Below, one piece after another: positions 9,442-46,000 of a stretch of 64,000 bases of DNA (positions are counted from its first letter, which is position 1; each line of letters opens with the position of its first letter). The notes under the pieces were generated by a model, which was not told the DNA's origin, searched no databases, and saw nothing but the letters and a program-made list of their open reading frames with translations. The stretch is taken from contig JAVTLE010000005.1 of NCBI GenBank assembly GCA_033439295.1, positions 2,034,501-2,098,500 of the forward strand, given 5' to 3'. Both the position numbers and the translations under genes were made by a program. Source of the stretch: Deuterostichococcus epilithicus (taxonomy: Eukaryota; Chlorophyta; Trebouxiophyceae; Prasiolales; Stichococcaceae).

Positions 9442-11122
9442 TCACGCCTCGGAGGAGGCCTTGATGCGCAGCGCGTTGATCTTCTTCTTGGTCTGGTAGT
9501 ATGCTGCCGCCTTGACCTTGCGCCGTGCCTCCAGGGTCGCGACTGCATCCTGGTGCTTCCAGCCCACCTACAGCGCAGGAAGTCAACAATTGGGTTCTGA
9601 AACGCTTGAGGCACGCAAGGGAAGCGCTCGACGCGAACCTCGCCTGCAGAGGTGCAAGCGCCTTGGCAGGCTGTCAATTCTGGCTGTATAATGGCAGGCG
9701 CCGCAGCAAGCTTTTGCTGCACAGCGACAGAAGGGTGCCCGCTCTGTAGCGCTGCCCGCCAGTACCAGCCAGCAGCCAGTGTGTCCGTACACATGGCGCC
9801 GGAAGGCCCATGCAAGCGGCGGCGGGCAGCGGCCGCAGCAACGGCAGAGGCAGCACCGAGAGCAGCGGAGGTTTATGCTCGGGCAAGGGGGGACAGCGCG
9901 CACCGTGGTGGCCAGGTCGCCGAGCTTGACGGACTTGTGGCCATGCTGGAGGCGCAGCACCTTGAGCGCATCGGGCACCACCAGGCGCTTGACCGTGTCG
10001 AACGGCGCCGGCACACCCTCGTACACCTTCAGCCGCTCCATGGCCGCCGCGCCCCGCTTCGTCTTGTGCGGGATCATGCTGCGCGCAGGGAGCAGGCACG
10101 GCGTCGGATGCCTGACTTGGCGGAGGGGGATGGCCACTGTTCACCAGGCCGAAGGCCTCGGCTCGGCTCGCAACTCCGAGGCGCAAGTATGTGCTGACCC
10201 ATGCTGAAAAGCGCCGCTGGCTCCTTCGAAAAGTCCTTTCCAGTGGAGCCATGCCAGCATGCGTCCCAGCTCGCAAACCTACTGCAGCTGCTGGTTCGCG
10301 GCGATGCCTGGCAGTCACTGCCTCGGCGCGCACTACTCGCGTGCGCAGCCCAGGCCGCGAGTTCGCTAGTAGGCCAAGAGAAGCCCCGCCCAGCACCAGC
10401 ATCATTGCATTCCCGAAATGCACTAGGGGGTCGCAGCCATGGATTGCATGATCTTGGATCCACAGCCATGGCCTGCTTGGCAGGTATTCGCCCAGAATAA
10501 TTCGAGCGACGATGCAGTCGCGTGACTCGCCCAGTGCCAAAGCCGCCAGCAAAGTCGGCACTGCCGCCATGCGGCATGTTCCTGAAATTTCCGCTGGCAT
10601 GCGCGCCAGATGTGCCAGCTGTCGACAGCGAGCCCTCACCCGCGGATGGTCCTCCACAGGATGCGCGACGGCGCGCGGAAGTGGATGGGACCCTTCTGCG
10701 GCGCTGTCAGCATGCGCTTGCGCAGGAAGCGCTCGTACTTTGCCTTCTGCCGCACCAGGCCGCCGCTGATGTCAACCTCCTCGCATCGGACCGCCACCTG
10801 CCATGCGGTAGCAGCATTCATTTCGTCTACGCGCAGAGCATGACCGGCCGCTGGCAGAGAGGCAACTGGCCCTGCTGTGGCAGCACATCAGTCACGAGGA
10901 GAGCACTCACCACGTACTGTCCCGACAGCAGCTGCTTGGCCAGGACCGACGCCAGACGGCCCAGCATGTGCCCACGGCAGTCGATAACCACCGGCTGCAA
11001 GTACAACGAGACCAGACATGAGTTGCCTCTCGAGCAATTGGCAAAGCCTCCCATCCTCAGGAACGGCGGCTGCACACGCAGGGCGGTGTGCACTGTGCAC
11101 GGGTCTGGCCTACCTTCACCAT
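9442..11122 (-). CDS. RPL13A: 60S ribosomal protein L13a (uL13)
   Basis: Cytosolic large-subunit ribosomal protein. Exons 11122-11120, 10994-10911, 10797-10640, 10078-9904 and 9567-9442 give 181 residues in frame. Conserved blocks are [78 protein letters not shown] and [16 protein letters not shown]. The start is inferred: exon 2 enters in phase 0 directly at PVVIDC, and the only suitable upstream codon is an ATG followed at once by a GTGAAG donor, so the first coding exon would be the start codon alone. The C-terminus stops about 20 residues earlier than the Arabidopsis protein. Divergent from the SCAB1-like gene, with which it shares an upstream region of about 360 bases. Confidence 0.92.
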
Positions 11123-11481: not shown

Positions 11482-14400
11482 ATGGACGACGTTTCTCCCC
11501 TGCCGGTCAAGAAGCTAAGCTTGAAAGAAGTGGCGCGCCGCTTCGAACAGGGCGATGACACGGCCCTGGAAGACTACAGGTTGCTAGCCTTCACTCGTTG
11601 AGGCAATGCACTACACAGACCTTCGTGCCGATGCTGATGTGCCTCTGCAGCGGCAAACACGCGGCAAGCATCTGATTCCTCTCATGGCTCTCGTTGCACA
11701 ACGATCCCGGATGTGACATTCTCGCCATATGCGCAGGGTCCTCAACCTCAAAGAGTCTTCCGAACAGCTTCAGCAGACTCTCCTTCAGAGCATGCCAAAA
11801 GGTGGCTTGGAACCGGCAGTCGTGCCGTGTGCTTCCCGGAGATCCTTGAGGCGGCACGAGCCATGCTGCTGCGGCAGCATTTGCGCACGGCACAACTGGT
11901 GCATTATGCTCAAATCTGTGTCCCAATCGTGCACGCAGGCAAGCTGCTCATGAAGGAGCTCGTCAAGCTCGTTGAGGTGCGTTTCTAGCCTTGCGCTGCG
12001 GCCGGCTGCCCAGCGTCGCTGCTTGCTGCTGGCACCACTAGGCTCGAGCCTGCCTGCATCTGAATCCCTGCATTGCGGTGGGTTCAGGAGCTGCAGGGGC
12101 GTGTCGCCGGACGCAATAGCGAGGACGCATCCCAGATCAAGCAGGGTCTGATTGACCTTCAAGCCCAATGGAAGAGCATCGAACAGAGCGCCAAGCAGGT
12201 GAGGCGGACGCCGCAAGCAGCAATGCGCATCTAGAGTATGACTCGGGAAAATTTCTGAATTCCGATTGTTCGGCGGCCCAGTCGCTCGGACAGACCTGAT
12301 TGCTCATTGCAAAGGCAGAGCACGATGTAGCGGCAATGGCGCCCGCCGCGGACCTCGCAGGGAGAAAGAGAAGGGGGGGTGGCAAGCGAGACACGCCACC
12401 ACCCGGCACGCCTGCCCTGGGGAGACTTTCAGCCCATGTCACCTGCGTCTGTGAAGGTCTCGGCTTCTTCACAGGCCGCAAAGGAACTGACCGAGAGCGC
12501 AGCGGCAACAGCAGCAACCAACGATGCGCACTTTCAGGCCCGCATTGAGCAGGTGCGCCGTTTCAGGCAGCGGAGTATTTGGGTCATTGTGCCTCAGCGC
12601 TTCCCCGGCCTGGACGTGATGCATGATCGGCTGGGCGATTGACCTCGATCACTGACGGCAGCCTGTCGTGGAACGGCGCAGCTGGACGATGAGTGTGCGA
12701 CGCTGCGGAGCCAGGTAAGCGCGGCTCCATCTGAGCGGACTTGGACCATTGTGGCATACCTTTTTATTTGTGTCAAGTTCCATCAGGCGAACACGGCAAG
12801 AGAAGTTGCCGTGCACGGATGCAGGTGGCTGAGCGCAATTCCATGATTCAGCAGCTGCAGCAGCAATTGGATGCTGGCCGCAGCCCGCCATCGGACCAGA
12901 AGGTGGGTCGGCTCTCTGATCTGGGCCCTGATCAAAAGGGGGGTTGGGAGAATCCTCAGTGCGACAACCCGGCGCGAACGCTGCCACAGCATCAACATAC
13001 GTTTTCGAGCGCCCTGGTCAGCGGAGGCTTCATGTTGTTCACTCTGTGCCGCAGGAGAATCACTCGCCCATGCGAGACAGCAGCAACCTTGGCGGCGCAG
13101 AGCAGGCGGCGTCGCCACTCGTGTCGCCTGCGAGGCGGTCGCCCGTCAAGCGCTTCCCCACGCTGTCGACGCTCAGCGAGGAGGCGGCGTCGCCCGCGCT
13201 GATGCGCACCCTGTCGATCGGCGGCAGGTGAGGAGCAGCGGGTGTTGCAACTACATGCAACAGGGCATCTCCTTCTCCAGGGTCCTGTATAAGGCTAGAG
13301 GCACACTTTGGCGGCATTTGGCTGTGAATCTCACACGACCTTCTGGCGAGCTCTGCAGCCCGCGGGTGGGGCAGACGCTGTCGGTGGTCGCTGGCGGCAG
13401 GGCGGCTCCAGACAACCTGCCACTGCAGTGGCTGCGTGCCTGCCCCGCCAACGGCCAGCTGTCCGTCATCAGCGGCGCCGTGCGCCACCAGGCAAGGCAT
13501 TCCGTGCTCCCGCGCTGTGATAGGCATATTGTAAGATTGTGTATTCAAGCTTGTCTTTGCCAAGTCGCGCCGCAGCATTGCAGCATGCCGGTGCACAGAT
13601 GTTCAAAATTTCTCCTGTCGCCGCCCCCCGCTGAAGCACGAGCCTAAACCACTGTGCTCTTTGGCTGCAGTACTCGCCAGAGGTGGCGGATGTGGGCTGC
13701 ACGATCCTCTGCCGCGTGGGTTCGGGGCGGGATGTGGCCGCCGATGGGGACAGCAATGTGCTGCAGGCAGCATCGCCGGTAACGGCAGAAGCAGGTGTGC
13801 AGCCGCCTATGCCACACTGACGGGGGTTGGGCCTTGCCTGTGGTCGCCGCCACACCCTGCGAGTTTTTGTTACCATTTCTTACCCTTGTTGCACTAATCC
13901 GAGCTGCTCTCGCCAGCGTCACCTGGCCGATTTCGCACGTGACCTCATCCTCTGGCGTCAAAACCGGCGGTGCCGCGCTCCTCTTCTGACGGGCATCCTT
14001 GCGGCCGCACAGGCGTGAACAAGGAGGCTGCTCAGCTGGAGGCAGCCGGCGGCGCCAGCTTCTTCGTGGTGGGCTCTACGACCCGCCCTCACCTGCACTG
14101 CTGTCCCCTGCCCAAGACGCTGGAAGACTGCCCACAGCACAGCCGGCCCCGCCGCGGCAGGCTGTCGCAGCAGGCGCAACCAGATGCAGCGACTGGCTGC
14201 AGGAAGGCTGCGGCTAGACAGCAGCAAGACCCGCCAGCAGCGCTCCCTCCCACCAGCCGACAGCCCTGGGAGGCTGATGCTGACGCTGTGATGCAGTACG
14301 AAGGAGCTCGCAGCAGCGCCTCCGCACTACTTGCAGTCACACCCTGATCAGAGCACCCCACTCAAAAAAACTAAGACCGTCAGATCCATCCCGCCCCCAG

Positions 14401-15113
14401 GTGCCGGTGCAGCACAATGGCATCGTCCAGCGCAAGCGCACCGTGGCTGCGCTGCGCATCGACGCCGACGGCTTGGCGGTGTCAGCGGGCGGCAAGGACA
14501 TCGCGGCCTCGGGCTACCATGCAGAGATGCAGGTTGGCACAGACGTATCAGCGGGAGTGAATGGCAACCTGACTTCGAAGGGCTTCCGGCATGCGTGTAC
14601 CAGGAAGTGATCCGCATGTCGGCTGCAGCAGTCCCCGAGGTTAAAAACACGACCGCATCAGCACCCGCCGCGTGCTGAAGGCCGGTGGCAGCATGCGGCA
14701 GGTGTGCGGCGCGCGCGGCGGCGGCGACGGCGCGGCACAGGGCATGTTCCTGGCGATGAACGCGAACCACGTCTTCATGCTGGCGCTGGAGACGCCGCTG
14801 AAGCGCAACGTCTGCATCTCCCTCGTGCGCAAGGTGGGACGCCGCTGCACAAACCGGAGCAGAGACACGAGGCCTGATGAGGCGGGCTGCTGCCATGTCG
14901 CATGTGCAGGGAGCCCACCTCGTCCAAAACCCGGAGATATGTGTGCCGCGGGAAGGGGGTCCCGTTACTTGGCCATCATCATGCAGCAGGACGGAGGTCC
15001 TGCAAAAGTTGCTGAGCTGCTCTGCTGACACCTGGGTCTGACGCCTGCCACAACGATTGCAGATGGCGGTAAAGCATGGGCTGAGCCTGGAGGGCCCACA
15101 GGAGGGCCCGTGA
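11482..15113 (+). CDS. SCAB1-like coiled-coil/Ig-PH protein
   Basis: Homologue of plant STOMATAL CLOSURE-RELATED ACTIN BINDING PROTEIN 1, which binds, bundles and stabilises actin filaments in guard cells. Fourteen exons: 11482-11579, 11737-11801, 11939-11976, 12088-12198, 12475-12552, 12682-12714, 12825-12902, 13055-13227, 13359-13491, 13671-13794, 14013-14068, 14401-14532, 14702-14833, 15063-15113. They sum to 433 residues plus stop. Matches in order: KKLSLKEVARRFEQG and ELQGRVAGRNSEDASQ in the actin-binding/coiled-coil part; further coiled coil (SMIQQLQQQLD); a Ser/Pro linker (SPARRSPVKRF). The Ig-like half has VGQTLSVVAGG, LQWLR, ISGAVRHQYSPEVADVG. The PH half has VPVQHNGIVQRKRTVAALRI, GYHAEMQVCGARGGGDGAAQ, FMLALETPLKRN. 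The first ~60 residues of the Arabidopsis protein are absent. Intron 9 is GC-AG (13492-13493). Confidence 0.88.
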
Positions 15114-15642: not shown

Positions 15643-18600
15643 TGACCGCTTGCGGCGGCGCGTTGGTGGTCTGCAGCACACCCAGCACGAAAGGCAACGC
15701 CGGGTGGAAGTGCCACGTCACGAGCTGCTTCTGTGGGCGCGCCGACGGCGCCGGCGATTCGAAGGCGCCGCCACTGATCTTGAGGCGCACCGTCTCCCGC
15801 CGCCCTCGCGACGCAAACTTCAGCGGCACCTGGATCGGCATACGAACCCCTCGACACTGGAATCCAGCTCATTACAAGCTGGGCGGCTTCTGATGAGGTT
15901 GCGGTCTGAGGAGCAGGAGCATGTAAGTGTCAGCCGGGTGCTGCATCGCTGGCTGTGCCTGGAGCCCGCAAACTAGCTTTCAACTAAGGAGGGGCAGCAT
16001 GCCGGCTCCACAACAGTTTCACCAACTATCGAAAGGCGGCTGCCATGCCTCCAGATACTTCACTAGTCATGACACGAGGCGATCCCGCACCTCAGCCAGG
16101 GCGCGCGGGCGGATGATCGGCGAGATGAGTTTCTCGTCGTACTGAAACAGGCACGCGTCCAGAAACGGCGAGGCACACAGCACCTGGCTGGTGGGCGGGA
16201 TCGCTGCCAACACCCGCCGCGTCACCTGTGAGTTCACTGCCACCCGTCCAGCATGTGCCAGCTTTCTCGACTCGCCCAGGACGGCTATTCGCAGGCATTG
16301 CCGCCAAGGACACCACGTGCGCAGACTGTGTGGGTTTCGCAGGTGCGAGAGCCGACGGATCACCGCGGGTCACCGCAGGGGCCCACCTGCTGGGGGGTCC
16401 AGTACTGGTGTGCCATCTGCCGGTCGATTGCCGCCCGCGCGTGCGCCGGCGCGCCGCCCGGCGTCAGGAACCTGCCGCAGCAAGGGGCGCCACCTTCATG
16501 CACAGTGCAGGGCGTGCATGCGGCAGTCATCACACTTCAAGCCCTGAGCATGCGGATGCCTGATGTCCAGGCGTCCCTGCAGCCGCAGGGCCGGCAACGA
16601 GCGGACACAGTTGCGGCAGCCAGCGTATTCCCTGATGAATAAACTGACCGCTGCCAGGCGCTGGTGACGGCGGGCGCGCTGAAGTGTCCGGCATGGCGCA
16701 GGTACATCTCCAGCAGCGCCGGGCTGCTGTTGGGCAGCACCGCGCCCACCAGGCCGTCCGCCAGGGACAGCACCGCCAGGAAGGCGGCCTGCTGCTGCGA
16801 CTCGGCGTGGCGCAGCGCCGACGCGTCCGGCGGCCCGAGCGCCAGCAGCAGGTGCTGCTCGTCCAGGAACTGCGCCTGGGACCCGAGGAGCAGGAGCACA
16901 AAGATTAGGACGAAGGTGGTTCGCTCCGTTGCTTGATGTTCATCGACCAGAGTGCACAGGCAACAGATCTGGCAGGCACAGATCTGGCAGGAAATGCCAA
17001 CAGCTAGTGGGAGCAACGCGTACCTGTTGTGATCGTAATGGTAACCGTGCTACCCGTAACCCTATTACACCTGGCAGGGTGAGAACATGCCGCTGCCTGA
17101 ACAGCCTGATGGGGCCTGCACCCTCAGAGAGCGAGGCTCAGCCTCCGTCCGTCAGCTTCCAGACGCCACACCTTCCAGACGACCAGGCTGTTGAAGGAGT
17201 CGAAGTGCAGGATGAAGCGGTCCCGCGGCGGACGCTGCCCACCGGAGGCCTCGGCGGCGGCGGCGCCGCCACCGCTCCTGCCGTCCAGGGCCACCGAGTG
17301 CGCTCGCTGCACCTCGATGCCGCCGCCGCCGCCGCCGCTGTCGCCTCCAGCTTCCAGCAGCCGTCCTGCCACAGGGTCGCGCAGCGCACGGCACAGGTAG
17401 GCCAGGATGCGCTGCCGCAGCCCCGTGATCATGCCGCCGCCGCCGCCGCCGCCGCCGCTCCTGTCGCGCACTGTGCCCGCCTCCGCCTCTGCAGTTGCAA
17501 AGCCCATATACTTGCTGGCACTCTGGCAGCAGATGTTGGTTTCCGACAAGTACTAATGAAAATTTGCAAACACGAAACCACTTGCCTCATCGCGGACAGG
17601 CAAATCGCGAATGCCGAGTGTCGGATACAGAGGAATGTCACCTGCTGGTGCATCGGCACGCACCAAGCGCTGTTGAGATGCAGAGCGCTCACCCATGTGC
17701 ACACCCTCGAAACCCTGCAAGACGCACCTGTGGAGCTGGCCATGGAGTTGGGGGCATGCAGCAGCTGCCCCAGCACCGCATTGTTTGGCCGCTGCATGCC
17801 AGAGACCATCTGCAGCTGTGCGCCACGCGCGCCGCCCACGCCGGCGCCACCGCCAAAGATGCCGCCCCCGCCGAACGCGCCGGCGCCACCGCTGCCGCTG
17901 TGCCCAAGGCCGTGTGAGCCGGACCGCCGCATCGGGGCCAGGCCGCCGCCGGCCGGCAAGGCAGTGGCGCTGCTGGTTGCGGCCTCGAGCTGGCTCACCC
18001 GCTGTTCTATCTGACGCGCCGCCTGCAGGGCGCAACTTTCTTGGTCAGTCTCACGTGCAGCCAGCACAACTCAAGACGGTCACAGAAAGCCGCGGAGGGC
18101 CAACAATAGATGCAATGGTATTATCGATCTTACAACGAAAGAATTTATGAACGTTACAATGCGATAACTTCAAACAGCATCCGCGCCTGGGGCTGGGAAG
18201 CGCGCCAGCGGGCTTCGTCGGCAGCGGCTTGCGCGAGCATGAGCTCGTCGTCAGGTGCCAGGTGCGGCCCTAGCTGCGCCAGCGGCGAGAACCGGCCGTC
18301 CGGCAGCACCTGCCGCGCAGCAGGCTGTGGAATCAACAACCCGTCTCAGCGTATCAGGCACGACTTCCCGTCAGACCGTCCTGACAGCCCGTCCTCATCT
18401 CGAAGCAGAGCGACATGCTGTGGATGCTCTGTCTGGAGATCACCCTTCTTGCCTCTTTGCCAAGCAAGAAGACCGCAGGATGCGGCACATGCAAATTGGT
18501 GGCCTCCGAGGTCTTGCAGAAGCCTGTGGCCATGTCGCAGGAGCCAGCGCTCAGAGAGGCCGGCTGGCGGCGCGCAGATACCTGCAGCAGGTGGATGGTC

Positions 18601-20058
18601 TGGGAGCGCAGGCCGAGCACCGCGAGGCGGTCGCCGCAGGCGGCAATGCCCGCATTGTGGCTCAGGTGGACAAAGTCCGCCGCCAGCACCAGCCTGTCCG
18701 TCACCTCCCCGTCGCTCGCGCGCACCTGCGACCGTGTGTTGACCCCGCTCGTTGCTGCCGACACTCTGCACTGTACATGGCGTTGAGCACCTTCTGCTTG
18801 CACGCACCCCAAACGGCAGCGCATTGGTAAAGAGGGCAGCCATGCCCCCTGTGCACCTGTTGGGCACTGGGTGCCAGCCCCCGGGGTGGGGGGACTGCAG
18901 GCTGCGACNGGTCCTGCAGGCTTGGGGCTGCGGCCAGCTTCACAGGACCGAAGCTGGGGAAGGCCAGAGGGAGCACGCCCACCAGGAAGATGGTGGTGGT
19001 GGCAACGAGCGGCAGCGCGGCGGGACCGCCGCCGGGCGGGCTGCCGCGGCCGCTGGACGGCGGGGACTGCGCCGCCACCACCAGGACGGTTTCCTTGTGC
19101 AGCGCCTGCCGGCAAACAGGCTTGCCCATCAGCGAGATAGGATGCTGCGCCATCTGACGTGTGTCCGGCCAATCACCGGCCGGCACTTGCGCATTGGCTA
19201 CGGCTTTGATCCCCAGAGGTACGACTGTTCCCGAAATTGGCCCCTCCCAGGCAACTCGTGCACTCTGTCCAGCTGGCGCGTCGCGGTCGCCGTGGGTCAG
19301 GTGTGTCGGCCAGTCTTCTGCTTCCCGTCAGCAGTCGCAGGCTCACCACGCAGGCGTCCTTGCACAGCATGTGCGGCGCGGCCACCAGGTGCCGCCGCCA
19401 CTCCAGCTGGAAGTGGCTGCTGAAGGCCGCCGCATGCTCCGGCAGCGGCGGTGGCTGCCCGCCGCCGTCCCCCGTGCTGGAGAAGTGCAGGCCCGTGAAG
19501 CTGAACAGCAGCAGCTCGTGCTGCAGCGCGCTGAAACAGACCTGTACACAGTCACATTACACTTGGCTCTGGTTCACGCATGCAGGTTGGTGTCGCCATG
19601 CTGCTGTTGCCACAGGAAGAGTCTGGCACTCAAATGCCGCAGAAAAGTCTACTGTCCTGGCTTCTCTGCCTTTCCACGCACCAGGTATCTGCCGCTGGGC
19701 GTGAATCTGCACACATGGCAGTCTGCGAGCTGGATGTTGTGGACCTGCGCACATCAGCGGCAGCGTGTGAACCTGTAGCATGCTACAGCTCGCGGCATTG
19801 AGATGGGTAATCGAAAGCACATGTGTAGATTCAACGCATGCGACGGAGCATTCACCACGGATGAAGGCGTGACGACCTCTGAGAATCGTCGCACATAGTT
19901 GATCTGCGGCATCAAGCAGATTTTCAGCAGCGAGCATGGCAGCGGGAGGACCATGTACCAGTCATGTGTGCTCTTCTTACCTCTGTGCACGGCTTTGCGG
20001 CAAACGTTTCCCGATGTCTCAGACGGAAGAACAGGTTGTGAGCTGGCTTCCGTCTCAT
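15626..20058 (-). CDS. DET1: DET1 (DE-ETIOLATED 1), light-signalling component of the CUL4-DDB1 ligase
   Basis: Nuclear DDB1-binding protein of the COP10-DDB1-DET1 complex. In plants it represses light responses, and in Chlamydomonas the CUL4-DDB1-DET1 ligase has been linked to photoprotection genes. First exons: 20058-19981 (MRRKPAHNLFFRLRHRETFA), 19903-19856, 19744-19682, 19541-19347, then one from 19105. Matches to plant DET1: INYVRRFSEVVTPS, DCHVCRFTPSGRYL, DFVHLSHNAGIAACGDRLAV, LRSQTIHLLQ, FSPLAQLGPHLAPDDELM, GLRQRILAYLCRALRD, RFILHFDSFNSLVVWK, AQFLDEQHLLLALG, FLDACLFQYDEKLISP, KQLVTWHFHPALPFVLGVLQ. The C-terminus YHRL matches the plant end. Gly/Ala-rich insertions, one from a GCC tract (17433-17458), enlarge loops. 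Base 18909 is undetermined and obscures one donor. The middle exon joints are approximate. THA lies upstream on the same strand, 337 bases away. Confidence 0.9.
17433..17458 (+). repeat. GCC microsatellite (polyglycine in DET1)
   Basis: Uninterrupted GCC triplets on the plus strand read as a run of glycines in the minus-strand DET1 frame, just before MITGLRQRILAY. A second shorter Gly run from the same exon lies near 17320. Confidence 0.8.
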
Positions 20059-20395: not shown

Positions 20396-22817
20396 CTAGC
20401 CTGTCTTCAGCGCCCCCCGCAGAGCTTTCGTGAAGCTCAGGCAGTCCCCCTTCGTGACGTCAAAGTGCGTCACAACACGAATGCCACCTGCACGTAAAAC
20501 ATGTGCCTTTCGTCGGCGATCTTGACGACAGCGCTTAGTGCAGGACACCGCTCGGAATCTGGCGGCAGAGGTGGCAACGTGCAGTGAGGGTGTCTATACA
20601 CTTGCATCAGCGCAGCACACAAACTTTCTTAAGTCAGCAGGCAGCGGGGGCCGAGAGACCGACCCTTCATGCCGCTGACGAGGATGCCCGCATCCTTGAG
20701 GTGCGCCAGCACCTTGACGACGGACGGGGCCTCCGGCTTCAGGTGGAACAGCACAATGTTGGACTCGACAGCGGCTTCATCGACGTCCACGAGGTCCATC
20801 CGTGCCAGCTCTGCAGTGGTTTCCAAGGAGCAATTGTCTTGCTTTGCACCCGATGCCTCGGGCATCCAGCCCAAAGGAGCGGGTGACGAGAACAGCTCTC
20901 AGCGCCGCTACTGGCTGCGGCTCAGAACACTGCACTGCCACATCGCGACTCCTGTGTTGCACATCCAAAGAGTGATAAGAGAGCGGCAACAGAAGGAGTT
21001 TCACCCTTCGCGATGAGCTTCGCATTTGCGTGGTCTGCAGCCAGGAGCGGCGGCGTGTTGCGCAGGGCCACCAGGCCGGGCGCTGCCAGCACCGCCACCT
21101 AGACACCGAGTGACTGACGTGCTTCACCAAGTGAGAGAGGAACTCGACAGAATAGACGACACTGCATGCTGCATATTGCACGTCTGCAGTGATGCCAAGT
21201 GCATGAGGCTGACCTGGCGCATGCCGCCGCCGAGCTGCTTCCTGATCTTGTGCGCCCTGTGGATGAACGCCGCCGGCCCGACGATAACAGATCCGACTGG
21301 CGCCCCCAGTCCCTGGAGCCACCACACCTTCACATCTCATGCTTGAAGCATGTGAATATGCGCTTGCGTTGGCAGAAGGAATTGGTGTTAGACATGTCCA
21401 TTTGCTGACACCCACCTTGGACAAGCAGAAGGTGAGTGTGTCTGTCTGAGCCGCAATGTCCTTCACAGCGACGCCTGCACAGCCACAACTCATGACGACT
21501 GTGAACCCCCAGATCACACTGGTCGCTCCAAATCTAGTTCCAAGGGGGTGGCCGACATTCTGCAGGAGCTTCCACACAAAACAAACGCAGCGCTGACAAG
21601 CGCACCGAGCGCCAGGACGGCATCGAGCATGCGGGCGCGGTCCATGTTGCTATGCAGCCAGCGGCACTTGTGGACAGAGGACGACCAGCAGGCACACTGC
21701 AGGTGCGTATCGTGTCCGCCACGAGCAGGAAGCAGGGACAACAACATACCGAGCGCGGCGGCGGCGTTGAAGATGCGGGCGCCATCCATGTGGACCGCCA
21801 GCCGGTGAGCCTCCGCCCACCCCTTTAGGGAGGTCAGGTAGTTCATGGACAGCACGCGGCCACCGGCGCGGTTGTGCGTCTGCTCGACGGCCACCACGAC
21901 CGGCCGCGCCGAGTGCTGGTCGTCAGGCCGGTTCCTGTGCGCCAATGGGCATGTTGGCTCTCTCTCTTCATTCATGTTGTTGCCAAAAATCGCTGGGAAA
22001 CCGCCTCGGGCGGCAGGTCACGACATGGCAGTCATTCTTGACAGGGAGCCGCGCACTGTGGCAGAGCTGGCCGGGTGAGAGTCCCAGATCAGTCCTCCCA
22101 CCTGAGGGCCTCGTCGAGCGACGTCAGCGGGATCTCGCCATTCGCCAGCGACGGCAGCAGGTGCATGATGACCCCGCCGAGCGCGGATACGCCGCCGCCC
22201 TCGTAATGGAAGATGTGGCTGTCAGAGCCCAGCAGCACCTCGTCGCCACGGCCGCAGTGCGCCAGCAGCGATGCCAGGTTGCCCATCGTCCCAGTCGGCA
22301 CAAACAGGGCCTGCGTGAGCGACCACACAGGTGCTTTCGCCGTAATTTCAGACAACCCTGCCAGGGGTGGGTTCGAACTGTCCAAGACGATCCTGTAACA
22401 GTCCCTTGCTCCACTTGCGGTCATGGATTCGTCTGCATGCTGGCACGCAGCAAGCCTCTGCAGAACCAGCGACCGTTTGACAGAAGGCGCACCGCTTCCT
22501 TGCCCATCAGCTGCGCCGCCTCTTCTTGCAGCGCATTCACCGTTGGGTCCTCGGCTGCGCAAAGCAGATTTGGACATGGTCGGGCGACAGATGTGACGGA
22601 TTGGTTTGCAATCAGACTCAAGGACAAGCTGAGAGGCCACAGTGCTGACCAGCAAGCATTGTTCCTCAAGCTGCTCACCGTACACATCGTCTCCAAAATC
22701 ATCGGATGTCAGTGCTGCAAGCGCCATCATCATGCCTGCGGTTGGCTTCGTCACCGTGTCTGACCGCAGGTCGATCATGCGCCGTGGTCCATTGGCCGTG
22801 GCCATCTGCGAGAGCAT
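20396..22817 (-). CDS. L-threonine (low-specificity) aldolase, PLP-dependent
   Basis: Cleaves L-threonine or allo-threonine to glycine and acetaldehyde. Exons 22817-22679, 22554-22493, 22310-22102, 21934-21750, 21474-21416, 21312-21214, 21098-21005, 20810-20664 and 20487-20396 give 361 residues in frame. Family signatures: MIDLRSDTVTKPTAGM, DDVYGAEDPTVNALQE (joined across intron 1), ALFVPTGTMGNLASLLAHCG, DSHIFHYEGGGVSALGG, LAVHMDGARIFNAAAALG (the Asp that holds the pyridine nitrogen) and TLTFCLSKGLGAPVGSVIVG (Schiff-base Lys, then the Gly-rich turn). The end reads KGGIRVVTHFDVTKGDCL. Start at 22817; an in-frame Met four codons later (22805) is an alternative. No transit peptide is evident, so it is probably cytosolic. 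Confidence 0.93.
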
Positions 22818-39990: not shown

Positions 39991-42881
39991 TCATTCGTCA
40001 ACCGCCTCCAAGGCCGCAACCACAGCCGGCAGCAGCGCCGGCAGGTGCGGCAGTTGCGCCAGTGGCACGTGCATGCCGTCAAAGGCGATCATGAGGCGCT
40101 CCGCCTCCGGCCCTGCACCAATTTCAGCTCCTCGTATTGTATTCCATGGCGTGGCAACGTCAGGCAGCCACACCGCACATGCCCAGCTGGACAGCCCTCT
40201 TGCGTGGTGACGACACGTCGACATTTTTGGTGAATTGACGACATTGTTACTAATGCAGTTTCCTTGCACACCAGCAGCTTGTAAGCGCGTGAAGGGGAAT
40301 GAGCACCTGTGGCCGGGACGCCAGCGGGGATCTTGGGGTAGCGCTGGCTGAAGTGCGTGAGTACGGTGCGGTAGGCGCCTGTGGCCGCTGCCACCGCCAG
40401 CGCCTCCTCCGTTGTGCTGTGCCGCCGCTTCAGCGCCTGCCGCACATCATCCCAGGCACAGAGCTCGGACCAAAAACTGACACAGCAACCGTCTCCTCAC
40501 ATAGCAGACGGTGCGGACCAAGCCTTTGCTACAGGCAGAACCGGCACCTGCTCTATGCTGTGAAGTACTCGAGGGCCGTGGCCAGTGCCTGCGGACCAGA
40601 GCGCTTAGCTTCCGCGCAGTGCAGCCCTCACGGAGGCGGGCCAGGTGCCGCCCGCGCGCCGTGCACTTGAAGCCATGTACAGCCATGGCTGTTCAAGGAG
40701 CCCAAAATCCCGGAGCAAGCCTCCTCCGCCGGCGCACCTCCGCATGGAGGCCGGGCTCAAACGTGGCCTCGTGGATGAGGAGGCTGACGCCTTCGGCGGC
40801 GCGCTGCAGCGCCGCGCACGGCCGCGTGTCTCCCGAGTACGCCAGGCTCCAGCCGGCCGCCGCGCGCAGCACCAGGCCCCAGGCGTCCGCGCAGTGCGCG
40901 ACGCGCACCGCCTGCAGCTGTGCCAGCCCTGCGGCAGAGCAGGAAGGCCGCGTCGGACGAAGGTTGCACAATCGCAGAGGGGCGCGCGTTCGCGGTGGGG
41001 CGGCAGGGCGGCAGTGGGAAATCAGCAGGGCAGCAGGGAGGTGCGCACCGCGGGGCGGGCATGGCCTGTCGCCCACAGGGGCTTCTACGAGCACGGCAGT
41101 ACGAGTACCCGGGGAGGGTTGCAGATAATGTACGCGTATTCACACCAGCGCACCCAGGGCGGGGAGCAGCCACTGCTCGTGGGAGCTACCGGCAAAGTCG
41201 GCGCAGTGCACGAAGCAGTGGCGCCACCGCTGCGCGGGCTGCAGCTGCGCCAGCCAATGCTGCGCCGCCTTCGGCCCTGCAGTGCGGCCGCACGCAAGCG
41301 GGATACTGAGTCGAGCAGGTAGAAGCTTGCCGGCACCTTCCCCGGCTCTCAACTGCTCGGGGTTGTGGGGCAGGGAGCCCAGTGCTTGTCGGCTGGATAG
41401 CGGACAGGGACAGCAAAGCGCAGCACATTGCCAACCCGATGCAAAGATACCAGGCATACACCGGCAGGCATCGATCCAAAGAGGCACTGTTCCAGCGAGG
41501 AAATGATCCAAAGCCATCAGAGGAGACGATCGGAGCAGCAGGACCGCACCAATGATGAGCAGCGGCGGCGCCGAGGCGGGGCGCGAGGCCAGCAGCGAAG
41601 GCAGGCCGAGCATGTGGTCCGCATGCCGGTGGCTGACCCACACCGCCGCGAGGGACGCCACCTGCGCCGCGGCGCCGGCGGCGCCGTAGCACCGCACCAG
41701 CTGCGCCGCAGTGCCCTCCCCTGCGTCCATCAGCAGCCCGCCGCCGGAGGCCAGCCTGCGACATGGGTGCGGTTTGCGGCGTCAGTGGAGGGGGTTCATG
41801 GTCAGGCGATCCAATAGCTGAGAACATGGGTCATGCTTGGCGCTGCGATTTCGTGCAGCACCAGCAGCGGGTCCTTGCCATGGGGTGGTTTTGCTTCTGG
41901 TCTATCGGTCCTGCGAGGCAATGTGGCAGGTGCACCACGAAGTTGACTGCACAGTTGCACCCAAGCGACTGAGCTCCGTAGGTCACAGCAACAGCGCCTT
42001 CGAAGACGAGACAGGCACTGCAGCCGCATGGGCCCGCAGCGCACCTCAGGTGGATGGCGCTGGCGCCGCGGTACTTGGACGGCTCCGCAGCGCCGGTGCC
42101 GAGGAACACCACCTGGGTGTCGTCGCCAGCCACTGCCAACCGCCTGAGGCACTCTGGCACAGCATCTCCGTCCTGCTGCTGCTGCTGCTGCTGGTGGGCC
42201 AAGTCACCACTGCGCTGTTGCTGCTGCTCCGCAGCCACGGCTGCCGGGCTGGGCTCCCGCTGCGGCAGGGAGGGCGGCCGGAAAGCGGGAAGCGCCGACG
42301 CTGTCGTCTCACTCGCCGGCGGTGTGGCTGCAGGGCTGACGCGCTCCTGGGCAGTCAAGGCAGCATCCTCCGGCGCCTGTCGGCCCGGCAGCGTCTGGGC
42401 CCCAGCGCCGCACAGGCGCGCACGCATGACACAGGCCGCCGCCTGGTTGGACGCCGGCAGCGAGGCGGCCGCTGGCTCTGTTGTGACGTGACTGCCATCC
42501 AGACGCCGCCTGCTGCGCGAGGGCGCAGCAGACGCATCTGCATCGGTGTCATCCAGCGGCCGCTTCGGCGGCATGGAGCTGAGCTGGTGCTGCAGCGGCG
42601 GCGGGGCTGGAGGTCGAGGGGGAGGGCGCGGCGGCGGCACCGGGCCCGGGACGGACACCGGCTGCGACGGCTGTGGCGCCTGCTGAGACAGCGCTGGCAG
42701 AGGGGTCACGCCCTGCGGCCAGGCGGTGGGCTGCCACTGCTGCTGTGCGGCGGCCGGCGGTGCGCTGACGAGCGGCAGCAGCAGTCCAAGTTGGCCATTC
42801 GGCAGCACCACCTGCATCGGCTGCATGTGCTGCTGCAGCGGCATGACCTGGAACTGTGGCGGCGGCTGCATCGGATTGTGG

Positions 42882-42920
<39 letters not shown>

Positions 42921-43032
42921 ATAGGCTGCACCTGCGCAGAGCCATGCCACTGCCTTGGCTGCCCCTGCTGCTGATGCTGCCCTGGCTGCTGACCCGGCCA
43001 CACAAGCGGGGGCGGCGGCAGCCGCAGATCCG

Positions 43033-43070
<38 letters not shown>

Positions 43071-46000
43071 CTCTGCTCGTGCTGCTGAGCCTGCTGCTGC
43101 TGGCGCCCCGCCCGGCCCGGCAGCCGCCGCGCCGCCCTGCGCTCCTCTTCCAGCTGGTGCGCCCGCCGCGGGTGCCAGGCGCGCTGCCAGGCGGCGGCCC
43201 GCCGGGCCANNNNNGCCGGTTTCGCGCCGCCAGCGAGCAGCTGCCCCAGCTCCTGGCGCGCCCCGAGCGCCGCGAGCGCCTCCTGCAGCGCCGGCCGCCC
43301 TGTAAGCAGCTCCGCCTGTAAAGTCCCTGCTTCAAGCCAAACTCGCCAACGTCAGCGTGCAGCAATGTCAGACCGCCTGCCGCGTTCGGCTATGCATCCA
43401 ACCAGGAGGCGAGTGCCGGTCACTGCCATCTTGTGCGAAGCAAAGACTTCACAACACACATGTGCCCCACTTGCGCCTCCGGACAGCACTGCACGTGTTG
43501 TTTCGGACTGACATCCTTGCCCATACGAGCGGCAAGGGGAGCCGAGCCGTTCCCAGCAGGGCGCGGAAAGCTCGCCAGTTTCGTCGAGGTCCTCGGATGA
43601 GGACGCTGCCTCTGCTGCATCCGAAGCCTCATCTGCCAAATGCGCGTCTGCTTGGGCCAACTTGGCAGCGGGCTGCGGCTCGCTGCTCGCTGGCACATGC
43701 TGCGAGGCGGCTGCTTGCGGCGAAGCGCCAACCTCTCCCGCTGGCGCATCACAGCCGCCTGCTGCTGCAGCAGCATCCACCGCCGCAGGGGCCCCTGGTG
43801 CTGTGTCAACCGCTCGACGCTGGGCCGGCGCAGCGCTCGCTGTCAGCGGCAGCGGGAACACACGGCTGCTGATCAGGCTGAGCTTGGCCAGCGTGCGCGT
43901 GGCGGCGGCAAAGCCCGCCGGTGCGCCCGCGGCGCCGCTGCCTGGCTGCACCTGCTCGCCCGGCAGCGATGCCGCCCAGCGCCTGTACGCCGCACCAGCT
44001 GCCAGCGCTGGCGGCGTCAGGTGCACCACCTGCAGCAGCCTGCAGGCGAGACAGCCTCGGCGTCATGCCGACGGCCTTGCAGGACTCGAGGGCTGCTCAC
44101 CCGATACTTGACCGGAACTGATTCGAAGTCCGACGCAGCTCTGCCATCCAAAAGTCGGCATCAGGGCATGGATGCTTGGGCCGGAAGACCAGATGATTGA
44201 ATTGATGTGGTGCCATGGAAGGTTCCCAGCATGCTGCTGCACCGCACACCTGTCGCGGCTCTGCTGCAGGCCGGCAATCGCTGGGTGCCGCTGCAGCTGA
44301 CCGAGTTGCTGCTCAGTGCTGCAGCTGACGACCGCCACCAGCCGCCCATTAGCTTTCAGGCAGCAGACGAAGGCCAGGATCGTGGCCGCTGCCGCCTCTG
44401 CGCGCTTTCTGCCTGTCGCACGATGGCAAAGTATGGATTTCCTGAGAGCAGATTGATTTGTCTGCCCACGTCTGGCTGCAAGCTCGGGTATCATCGTGCG
44501 ACTGAAAACTCCCATGGGACTTTGAAGAGGGTATGTGAACACATCCAGGATGACAATGATGACCAACCTGGAACTGGGCAGGGGCGGCCGCTGACTGTGA
44601 CTGGATTCTGGTGCTCCGCTCGGGCAGGCGTGCCGGTGCTCTGCTGCCTGCCGCTGTTAGCCTTCTGTGCCCAACGGCTGCCGTCCGAGCTGTTGCGCGC
44701 GCGGCCGCTCGAGCGGCTGTCCAGGCGGCCCGTGCATTGCTGCGGCTGCCGCAGCGACGCAGGTGCCAATGGCTGCTGCCGTGCCGACGGCATCTGCGAC
44801 GTCAGTGGCTGCCGCTGCAGCAGCCGCATCGCATCCAGCCTCAGCGACGAGCCCCTTGCGGCGCCGCCACTCCTGGCACCGGGGGTGCCCTTATTGGCAA
44901 ACAGGGCGTCGAGCTGCCCGAATAGGGCACCTCTCACCGGCTGCTGCTGCGCCGCACATCCATCAGCCTCGCCGCCGGCGCCGGCCCCTTGCGCCTGTGG
45001 GCCATGAGGGCTGCCGCTGCCTGAGGCGCTGCCAGACTCTTCTGACGACGACTTGTCGTCGCTGGAGCCGCTGGATGACGGGCCTGCTGCGGCGGGGGTG
45101 GCCGAGACCACACCCACTGGCCGCTGTGCCCGAGCCTTGGCAGCATCGGCGGGCGCTGTGGCATCGGCGTCGCTGCTGCTGCTGTCCTCGCTGCCGCTGT
45201 CATCCTCGCTGACGAAGCCGCTGCCGCCGCTGTCGCTCCTGCTCCTGTTGGGCGCCTGTGCAGATGGCCGGCCTACCGCGGCTTGTTCGGCAGCTGGAGC
45301 ACTGCCCCCCTTCTCTGTCATTAGCCATGGCGGCGGCTGCCAGGCTGCTGTCGGCTCCCAGAGTGCCACCACTTCCAGCACCTCATCCTGCAGCCAGCCC
45401 AGGCTCAAAGGTCTGAGCAACAAGAATGCAGCTGGATGCTGTCGGCGTTGCTTGCCTTTCCATGTGCACAGTGCCATTACACGGCTGATCTTACCCTGTA
45501 GATGACGGGGATGTCCCAGCGGCCGCACTCCAGCACGTGCACCGCCGGGTGTACCCAGGAGATGAAGTGGGCCACGCTTTCCAGACTTGCCGCGACGCCC
45601 ACCGGGCCAGCCACGCGCAGGGTGCCATGCCCGTCCTGCCGCAGCCTCATGACCAGCCCGGGCAGCCCACCCTGTAGGGTATCCAGCAGCAGCGAAGTTG
45701 CACCGGTGGCGTTAAAGACAGCGCAATTCACGACTGACAATGCAAAGGCACAGGGATCCAGCCACACTGGCGGCGGCGGTACAGTGGGACTGAGCGTCAC
45801 TGGCACACGAAGCAGGATGCCCCTCCGTCTGGAGAGCGTGGCGATCTCACCGTGGCATACGGCTGCGCGCTGCTGCAGAACACACCCCGCAGCAGGCCGC
45901 TGGGGCGCGTCTGGTGTTCCAGCGCCAGCCGCGACAGGCCGTCCGCGGCATTGAACAGCAGCTGCAAGGAGATGAAAAGCATTTCAGCTTGCTCTTGGAT

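What the first reader, a model, noticed from the sequence alone, without database searches (positions are those of the whole stretch)
11482..15113. SCAB1-like actin-binding protein in a green alga without stomata
The 14-exon chain closes in frame at 433 residues and follows the Arabidopsis SCAB1 order from the LSVRDLAHKFEKG-like block, through the GRVAGRN coiled-coil block, to the fused Ig-PH domain (VCGARGGGDGAAQ against the plant LCGVRGGGNAAAQ). SCAB1 is known for guard-cell actin reorganisation. A homologue here implies that the Ig-PH module and its coiled coil predate stomata and did another job first. About 60 N-terminal residues, part of the plant actin-binding region, are missing, so actin binding itself may be a later gain or may be weaker here.
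Basis: partly seen in the sequence, partly recalled or inferred. Interest (0 to 1): 0.85.

Follow-up and report, generated by a model that had tools for sequence, protein, structure and literature searches.

The report
Green-alga SCAB1 relative lacking actin domain
A single-celled green alga, which has no stomata, carries a clear relative of a plant protein that bundles actin in stomatal guard cells; it keeps the Ig-PH half and a remnant of the pairing coil but no recognisable actin-binding segment, so the protein's scaffold is probably older than its stomatal job.

Summary
A 14-exon plus-strand chain, 11482-15113, closes in frame at 433 residues. It matches Pfam SCAB-PH (E 2.2e-16) and SCAB-Ig (1.5e-8), both over cut-off, and the solved Arabidopsis SCAB1 Ig-PH chain (2.3e-19). 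The CC1 'GRVAGRN' block exceeds 2000 shuffles but stays under Pfam's cut-off. Plastid gene content and rbcL point to a chlorophyte, though EF-1alpha is unusual there.

The label 'actin-binding' is not supported. No SCAB-ABD match was found in the protein, upstream or in the genome, searched exon by exon. The ABD stretch that the alga keeps by position scores 3e-16 in recalled SCAB1 and nothing in the alga. RxLR and EER motifs are absent. A Ser/Pro-rich linker separates a shortened coiled coil from the Ig domain.

Best reading: a dimeric membrane-side scaffold of the SCAB family. Toxoplasma IMC32, reported with a SCAB1-like Ig-PH and coiled coils (PMC10569561, passages), is a precedent outside plants. 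New variant of a known kind; actin binding open.

The parts
11482..11579 (+). Exon 1: start codon and the KKLSLKEVARRFEQG block, which lines up with KRLSVRDLAHKFEKG of SCAB1; no recognisable ABD
   Evidence: model; one search score 57 against a best of 55 in 2000 shuffles; no SCAB-ABD match
11737..11801 (+). Exon 2
11939..11976 (+). Exon 3: first helix of the CC1-like hairpin (KLLMKELVKLVE)
12088..12198 (+). Exon 4: ELQGRVAGRNSED, turn and start of the second helix of the CC1-like hairpin
   Evidence: 69 against a best of 60 in 2000 shuffles; phmmer 4djg E 0.14; SCAB_CC E 0.012, below cut-off
12475..12552 (+). Exon 5: alanine-rich stretch
12682..12714 (+). Exon 6: part of a CC2-like stretch
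   Evidence: (3 of 2000 shuffles reach the CC2 score)
12825..12902 (+). Exon 7: end of the CC2-like stretch
13055..13227 (+). Exon 8: Ser/Pro-rich linker with [ST]Px[KR] sites at residues 171, 191 and 196
   Evidence: 12 of 20000 shuffles of residues 163-222 reach 3 sites; stretch chosen after the fact
13359..13491 (+). Exon 9: first part of the Ig domain; followed by the GC-AG intron
   Evidence: SCAB-Ig E 1.5e-8 over residues 222-315
13671..13794 (+). Exon 10: Ig domain
14013..14068 (+). Exon 11: Ig to PH junction
14401..14532 (+). Exon 12: PH domain, first part
14702..14833 (+). Exon 13: PH core VCGARGGGDGAAQ; acceptor at 14702 preferred over 14681
   Evidence: the only SCAB-PH place found in the genome at E up to 1
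15063..15113 (+). Exon 14: end of the PH domain and the stop codon
11123..11481 (.). 359 bases between this start codon and that of the divergent uL13-like gene (start by eye); leaves little room for a hidden 5' ABD exon

Best explanation
This is the only detected copy, in a probable chlorophyte alga, of a SCAB-family relative. Shown by sequence: a fused Ig-PH half homologous to Arabidopsis SCAB1, and before it a block like the SCAB1 CC1 hairpin. Inferred: the hairpin pairs two molecules into a dimer. The Ig-PH half then faces a membrane or a partner protein, as the PH of SCAB1 weakly binds inositol phosphates (passage). The serine-proline linker between them allows control by proline-directed kinases. 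With no recognisable ABD and no RxLR or EER motif, the two activities best described for SCAB1, bundling of actin through the ABD and release by PI3P, are not expected in their plant form. Any actin link would go through a diverged N-terminus or a partner. The scaffold is inferred to date at least from the common ancestor of Chlorophyta and Streptophyta, and stomatal actin bundling to be a streptophyte use of it.
For: SCAB-PH 2.2e-16 and SCAB-Ig 1.5e-8 over cut-off, next best model below its cut-off. 4dix 2.3e-19 over residues 219-431. CC1 block 69 against a shuffle maximum of 60. One SCAB-PH place in the genome. SCAB-ABD not found in the protein, in one stop-free upstream stretch per plus-strand frame, or in the genome, with a positive control. 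No RxLR or EER. Linker sites. Chlorophyte signs: rbcL ranking, no ndh- or rpl22-family match on plastid contig C21, tufA, minD-, cysA- and cysT-like genes. Precedent for the mechanism: Toxoplasma IMC32, an essential daughter-bud protein, is reported to hold a domain structurally like the SCAB1 Ig-PH plus five coiled coils, three of which are involved in binding its partner (PMC10569561, passages).
Against: SCAB_CC is below cut-off (E 0.012) and 4djg is E 0.14, so dimerisation by CC1 is an inference. The N-terminal block is marginally above its shuffles, so a diverged ABD that still binds actin is possible. EF-1alpha is unusual for a chlorophyte and usual for a streptophyte. A 43-position domain split by an intron could escape. 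No structure model, transcript or second species was available.
Confidence: 0.6

Rival explanations
1. It is a full functional SCAB: a fast-evolving N-terminus still binds F-actin, CC1 pairs two molecules, and the protein bundles actin in the alga as SCAB1 does in plants.
For: KKLSLKEVARRFEQG lines up with the middle of the SCAB1 ABD in the right place. The alga has actin-family, formin and myosin exons, and neither villin nor fimbrin was seen: 3 of 3 gelsolin-repeat places look like Sec23/24, two with a Sec23_helical match beside them and one with a sub-cut-off Sec23_BS match; the one CH place lies within 10 kb of a Microtub_bd match.
Against: SCAB-ABD finds the same 28 positions of recalled SCAB1 at 3e-16 and nothing in the alga. 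Motif score 57 against a shuffle best of 55. Genome searches are exon by exon, so absence of villin and fimbrin is weak.
Confidence: 0.25
2. The ABD was lost in this lineage: the ancestor had ABD, CC and Ig-PH, and this alga kept only the scaffold. This is compatible with the best explanation of today's protein and differs only in history.
For: The remnant of the motif at the right place fits decay of a former ABD; the upstream gap is short.
Confidence: 0.4
3. The organism is a streptophyte alga, so the find says little about the chlorophyte/streptophyte split.
For: EF-1alpha rather than EFL is the streptophyte norm (PMC2652445, abstract and passages); two EF-1alpha loci by eye.
Against: No ndh- or rpl22-family match on C21; rbcL ranks Chlamydomonas first among chains whose organism I can name (organisms recalled); Coccomyxa C-169 shows that a trebouxiophyte can have EF-1alpha (PMC3446292, passage). 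The use of ndh and rpl22 as markers is recalled.
Confidence: 0.08
4. The chain joins two genes: an unrelated coiled-coil gene (exons 1-8) and an Ig-PH gene (exons 9-14).
For: The N-terminal half has only sub-cut-off Pfam matches.
Against: CC1 block collinear with SCAB1 and above shuffles; in-frame joints; no gap longer than a 332-base intron.
Confidence: 0.06

Closest known systems
Arabidopsis SCAB1 (PDB 4dix/8y47 Ig-PH, 4djg CC1; Pfam SCAB-ABD, SCAB_CC, SCAB-Ig, SCAB-PH)
   Same: Fused Ig-PH (61 of 204 aligned residues identical to the recalled sequence); CC1-like block LLMKELVKLVEELQGRVAGRN; same order of blocks
   Different: No recognisable ABD; about 60 fewer N-terminal residues; no RxLR or EER motif; shorter coiled-coil region followed by a Ser/Pro-rich linker; 433 against 496 residues (recalled)
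Toxoplasma gondii IMC32 (reported Ig-PH domain and five coiled coils)
   Same: By report, an Ig-PH structurally like that of SCAB1 in a coiled-coil scaffold protein outside plants (PMC10569561, passages)
   Different: Coiled coils lie after the Ig-PH, not before it; predicted palmitoylation site at its start; similarity is structural by report, sequence not compared here
AIR9 A9-type Ig domain (Pfam IG_AIR9)
   Same: The Ig half scores 17.9 bits, as the recalled SCAB1 also does (20.9)
   Different: Below the 27.5-bit cut-off and far behind SCAB-Ig
SCAB3 of Arabidopsis
   Same: A SCAB protein with a role outside stomatal closure, in actin changes with light quality (title only, in a reference list)
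   Different: Sequence not compared here

Membership tests
SCAB family | SCAB-type PH domain | tested here: met
   PF17684 E 2.2e-16, 60.5 bits against cut-off 26.4
SCAB family | SCAB-type Ig domain fused directly before the PH | tested here: met
   PF16709 E 1.5e-8, 35.1 bits against cut-off 27.6, residues 222-315; PH from 326
SCAB family | SCAB coiled-coil region (CC1 hairpin and CC2) | tested here: inconclusive
   PF16712 E 0.012, 15.9 bits, cut-off 25; CC1 block reached by 0 of 2000 shuffles, CC2 by 3 of 2000
SCAB family | N-terminal actin-binding domain | tested here: not met
   No PF16711 match in the protein, the N-terminal 54 residues or one stop-free upstream stretch per plus-strand frame, or the genome at E up to 10, exon by exon; truncated recalled control 3e-16
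SCAB family | Binds and bundles F-actin as a dimer | not testable with these tools
   needs purified protein
SCAB family | PI3P binding through RxLR-dEER motifs (reported for SCAB1) | tested here: not met
   No [RK]xLR and no [DE]E[RK] in 433 residues; recalled SCAB1 has both. Motif named in PMC8905143 (passage)
SCAB family | Ig-PH fold in three dimensions | not tested
   A spliced protein falls outside the stated rule of structure prediction; no job was sent
Chlorophyta (host) | Plastid genome without ndh and rpl22, with tufA | tested here: met
   diagnostic value recalled; 16,000 of the first 200,000 plastid bases read N

The most novel reading that the evidence does not exclude
The SCAB scaffold (CC1 dimer plus Ig-PH) arose before the chlorophyte/streptophyte split without an actin-binding domain. 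In unicellular algae it worked as a membrane-side scaffold, possibly switched by cyclin-dependent kinases through its serine-proline linker during cell division, somewhat as Toxoplasma IMC32 with its reported Ig-PH acts in daughter budding; streptophytes later added the actin-binding and PI3P motifs that made it a stomatal actin bundler.
Probability: 0.25. Interest if true: 0.65.

Novelty: new variant of a known kind. Interest (0 to 1): 0.45.

Why it matters
SCAB1 is described in the papers seen here as plant-specific and known for guard cells. A chlorophyte relative without a recognisable actin-binding domain separates the age of the Ig-PH scaffold from the age of its actin function. It makes a clear test possible: does the algal protein bind actin, lipid, both or neither?

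Tried and rejected
My first acceptor for exon 13 (14681) was rejected because it inserts 7 residues and lowers both scores. A hidden 5' exon with the ABD was looked for in one stop-free stretch per plus-strand frame upstream and genome-wide (exon by exon) and not found. Villin or fimbrin as the alga's own bundlers: the gelsolin-repeat places look like Sec23/24, the CH place lies near a microtubule-binding match. Hydrophobic periodicity peaks at 3.6 for residues 53-110, as a helix would, but shows no clear heptad signal further on. The promoter scan uses a bacterial consensus and says nothing here.

Literature: in the held library, searches with SCAB terms and algae, streptophyte, Chlamydomonas or the Pfam/PANTHER names, and SCAB1 with Ig-PH or with SCAB2 and SCAB3, listed no title that reports an algal SCAB. 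I saw listings and abstract starts and opened six of the hits, one in its first half and five as passages; of 44 papers with SCAB1, actin and stomatal 20 were listed. One search shows that CPK3 and CPK6 are reported to phosphorylate SCAB1. The four main SCAB papers tried are not held, and protein databases beyond Pfam and PDB could not be searched, so automatic annotations of algal SCAB proteins may well exist. Two further paper searches returned nothing. The genome contigs, viral and phage collections were not scanned, as they hold no eukaryotic nuclear genomes by their description.

Full report
The gene. The finding's coordinates are exact. The plus-strand chain from ATG 11482 to the TGA at 15111-15113 has 14 exons and 433 residues. 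Twelve introns are GT-AG, one (13492-13670) is GC-AG. My first chain used the acceptor at 14681 and gave 440 residues. Moving it to 14702 gives GYHAEMQVCGARGGG, without the inserted residues, against plant YYSSAMQLCGVRGGG, and raises SCAB-PH from E 6.2e-13 to 2.2e-16 and the 4dix match from 1.6e-16 to 2.3e-19.

What it is. In the scan of 24,736 Pfam models, 32 matched at E up to 10 and 25 were shown; of these only SCAB-PH and SCAB-Ig pass their curated cut-offs, while IG_AIR9 (17.9 bits, cut-off 27.5) and SCAB_CC (15.9, cut-off 25) do not. Three PDB sequences matched at E up to 10: 4dix, the Ig-PH of Arabidopsis SCAB1 (2.3e-19), 4djg, its CC1 (0.14), and a ribosomal protein (0.78). In shuffle tests against recalled SCAB1, Ig-PH scores 226 (best of 2000 shuffles 64), the CC1 block 69 (60), the N-terminal block 57 (55); CC2 is reached by 3 of 2000. 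Over Ig-PH 61 of 204 aligned residues are identical; over the whole end-to-end alignment 115 of 401. SCAB-PH has one place in the genome at E up to 1.

What is missing. The recalled SCAB1 control shows all four SCAB domains, the ABD at residues 54-96. The alga's first exon begins at about SCAB1 residue 60 and carries KKLSLKEVARRFEQG against KRLSVRDLAHKFEKG. Yet the ABD model, which finds positions 16-43 of the control alone at E 3e-16, finds nothing in the algal N-terminus or in one stop-free stretch for each plus-strand frame upstream, nor in the 46.8-Mb genome at E up to 10 (exon by exon, so a split domain could be missed). The upstream neighbour, a uL13-like gene on the minus strand, starts near 11122 by eye (Ribosomal_L13 E 3.5e-4, 21.1 bits against a cut-off of 23.8), leaving 359 bases between the start codons. 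So the actin-binding domain is probably not hidden close by; it is absent or diverged beyond recognition. The RxLR-dEER motifs reported for PI3P binding of SCAB1 (PMC8905143, passage) are also absent.

What is new. Between the coiled coil, which is shorter than that of SCAB1, and the Ig domain lies a serine-proline-rich linker with [ST]Px[KR] sites at residues 171, 191 and 196. A fourth such site, at 404, lies in the PH domain. Twelve of 20,000 shuffles of residues 163-222 reach three sites, but the stretch was chosen after seeing it; recalled SCAB1 has a single SP, at its end. Whether the linker is an insertion or stands in for part of CC2 depends on the alignment: the local one places the CC2 end before it, the end-to-end one lays it over CC2. 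Control by proline-directed kinases is inference only; in Arabidopsis, SCAB1 is reported as a target of CPK3 and CPK6 (PMC11768100, passage).

The host. The window lies in a 46.8-Mb assembly of 21 contigs. C21 (211 kb) is the plastid: rbcL, tufA (by eye), minD-, cysT- and cysA-like genes (one search gives their superfamilies; the names are by eye). The rbcL protein scores highest with 8q04, whose organism I am not sure of, then with Chlamydomonas 1gk8, above pea 4hhh and rice 1wdd (organisms recalled). No Proton_antipo_M (ndh) match, 0 of 5, and no Ribosomal_L22 match, 0 of 6, lies on C21; three strong Proton_antipo_M places lie on C20, presumably the mitochondrion. These point to Chlorophyta; their diagnostic value is recalled, and 16,000 of the first 200,000 plastid bases are N. 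Against this stands EF-1alpha: two loci, recognised by eye. Cocquyt et al. 2009 give EF-1alpha as the streptophyte norm and find it in some ulvophytes (PMC2652445, abstract and passages); Blanc et al. 2012 report it for Coccomyxa C-169 (PMC3446292, passage). A Coccomyxa-like trebouxiophyte would fit all of this.

The actin setting. Actin-family, FH2 and myosin-head exons are present. Three gelsolin-repeat places were found: two lie beside a Sec23_helical match, and the third beside a Sec23_BS match that is below its cut-off (28.1 bits, cut-off 33.5), so all three look like COPII coat genes. One CH place was found, within 10 kb of a Microtub_bd match, as in kinesin-14 (the kinesin reading is recalled). 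No villin or fimbrin was seen, but the searches go exon by exon and are weak evidence of absence.

Mechanism. For SCAB1, the ABD binds actin, coiled coils make a dimer, and PI3P and phosphatidic acid inhibit bundling (PMC10730221, first of two parts read; PMC3426786, passages). Mapped onto the alga, the dimer-forming hairpin and the Ig-PH half are kept and the actin part is not recognisable. I therefore read it as a dimeric, membrane-side scaffold whose partner is unknown, possibly controlled through the linker. There is a precedent outside plants: Toxoplasma IMC32, described as essential for replication, is reported to hold a domain structurally like the SCAB1 Ig-PH, and three of its coiled coils are involved in binding its partner IMC43 (PMC10569561, passages). 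If that similarity is homology, the Ig-PH is older than green plants. Shown here: the Ig-PH homology and the missing ABD signature. Inferred: dimerisation, membrane contact, kinase control.

Verdict. A sound observation with an over-stated name. The homology is firm, the actin-binding label is not, and the evolutionary claim (Ig-PH scaffold older than stomata) is well supported if the alga is a chlorophyte, as seems likely. Whether the ABD was gained in streptophytes or lost here cannot be told from one genome.

Noticed in passing
window 15647-19950, minus strand: Downstream neighbour is a DET1 homologue (Det1 E 2.7e-9 over cut-off at 18585-18722; 1.5e-5, just under cut-off, at 15647-15847; a third piece, 19353-19541, had no match), tail to tail with the SCAB-like gene. 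Outer limits by eye.
   Followed up: partly
window 9900-11122, minus strand: Upstream neighbour looks like ribosomal protein uL13 (Ribosomal_L13 E 3.5e-4, below cut-off, on a 52-residue piece), head to head with the SCAB-like gene over 359 bases. Limits by eye.
   Followed up: partly
L007-L010 (contigs C19 and C9): Two EF-1alpha genes by eye, unusual for a chlorophyte; EFL was not searched for separately.
   Followed up: partly
window 13055-13227: Serine-proline-rich linker with three CDK-type sites that recalled SCAB1 lacks.
   Followed up: partly
contig C21 (L014-L033): Plastid contig of 211 kb; 28.5% GC over the 184,000 readable bases of the first 200,000, the other 16,000 being N; several ORFs look like intron or mobile-element ORFs by eye.
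   Followed up: no
PMC10569561 (paper): Toxoplasma IMC32 is reported to contain a domain structurally like the SCAB1 Ig-PH, so this fused module may be wider than green plants.
   Followed up: partly
window 20400-20830, minus strand: A piece that by eye resembles the C-terminus of an L-threonine aldolase; not tested.
   Followed up: no
window 41822-43351: Long overlapping open frames on both strands, in a 4-kb bin of 69% GC, no Pfam match at E up to 0.01 in either.
   Followed up: partly
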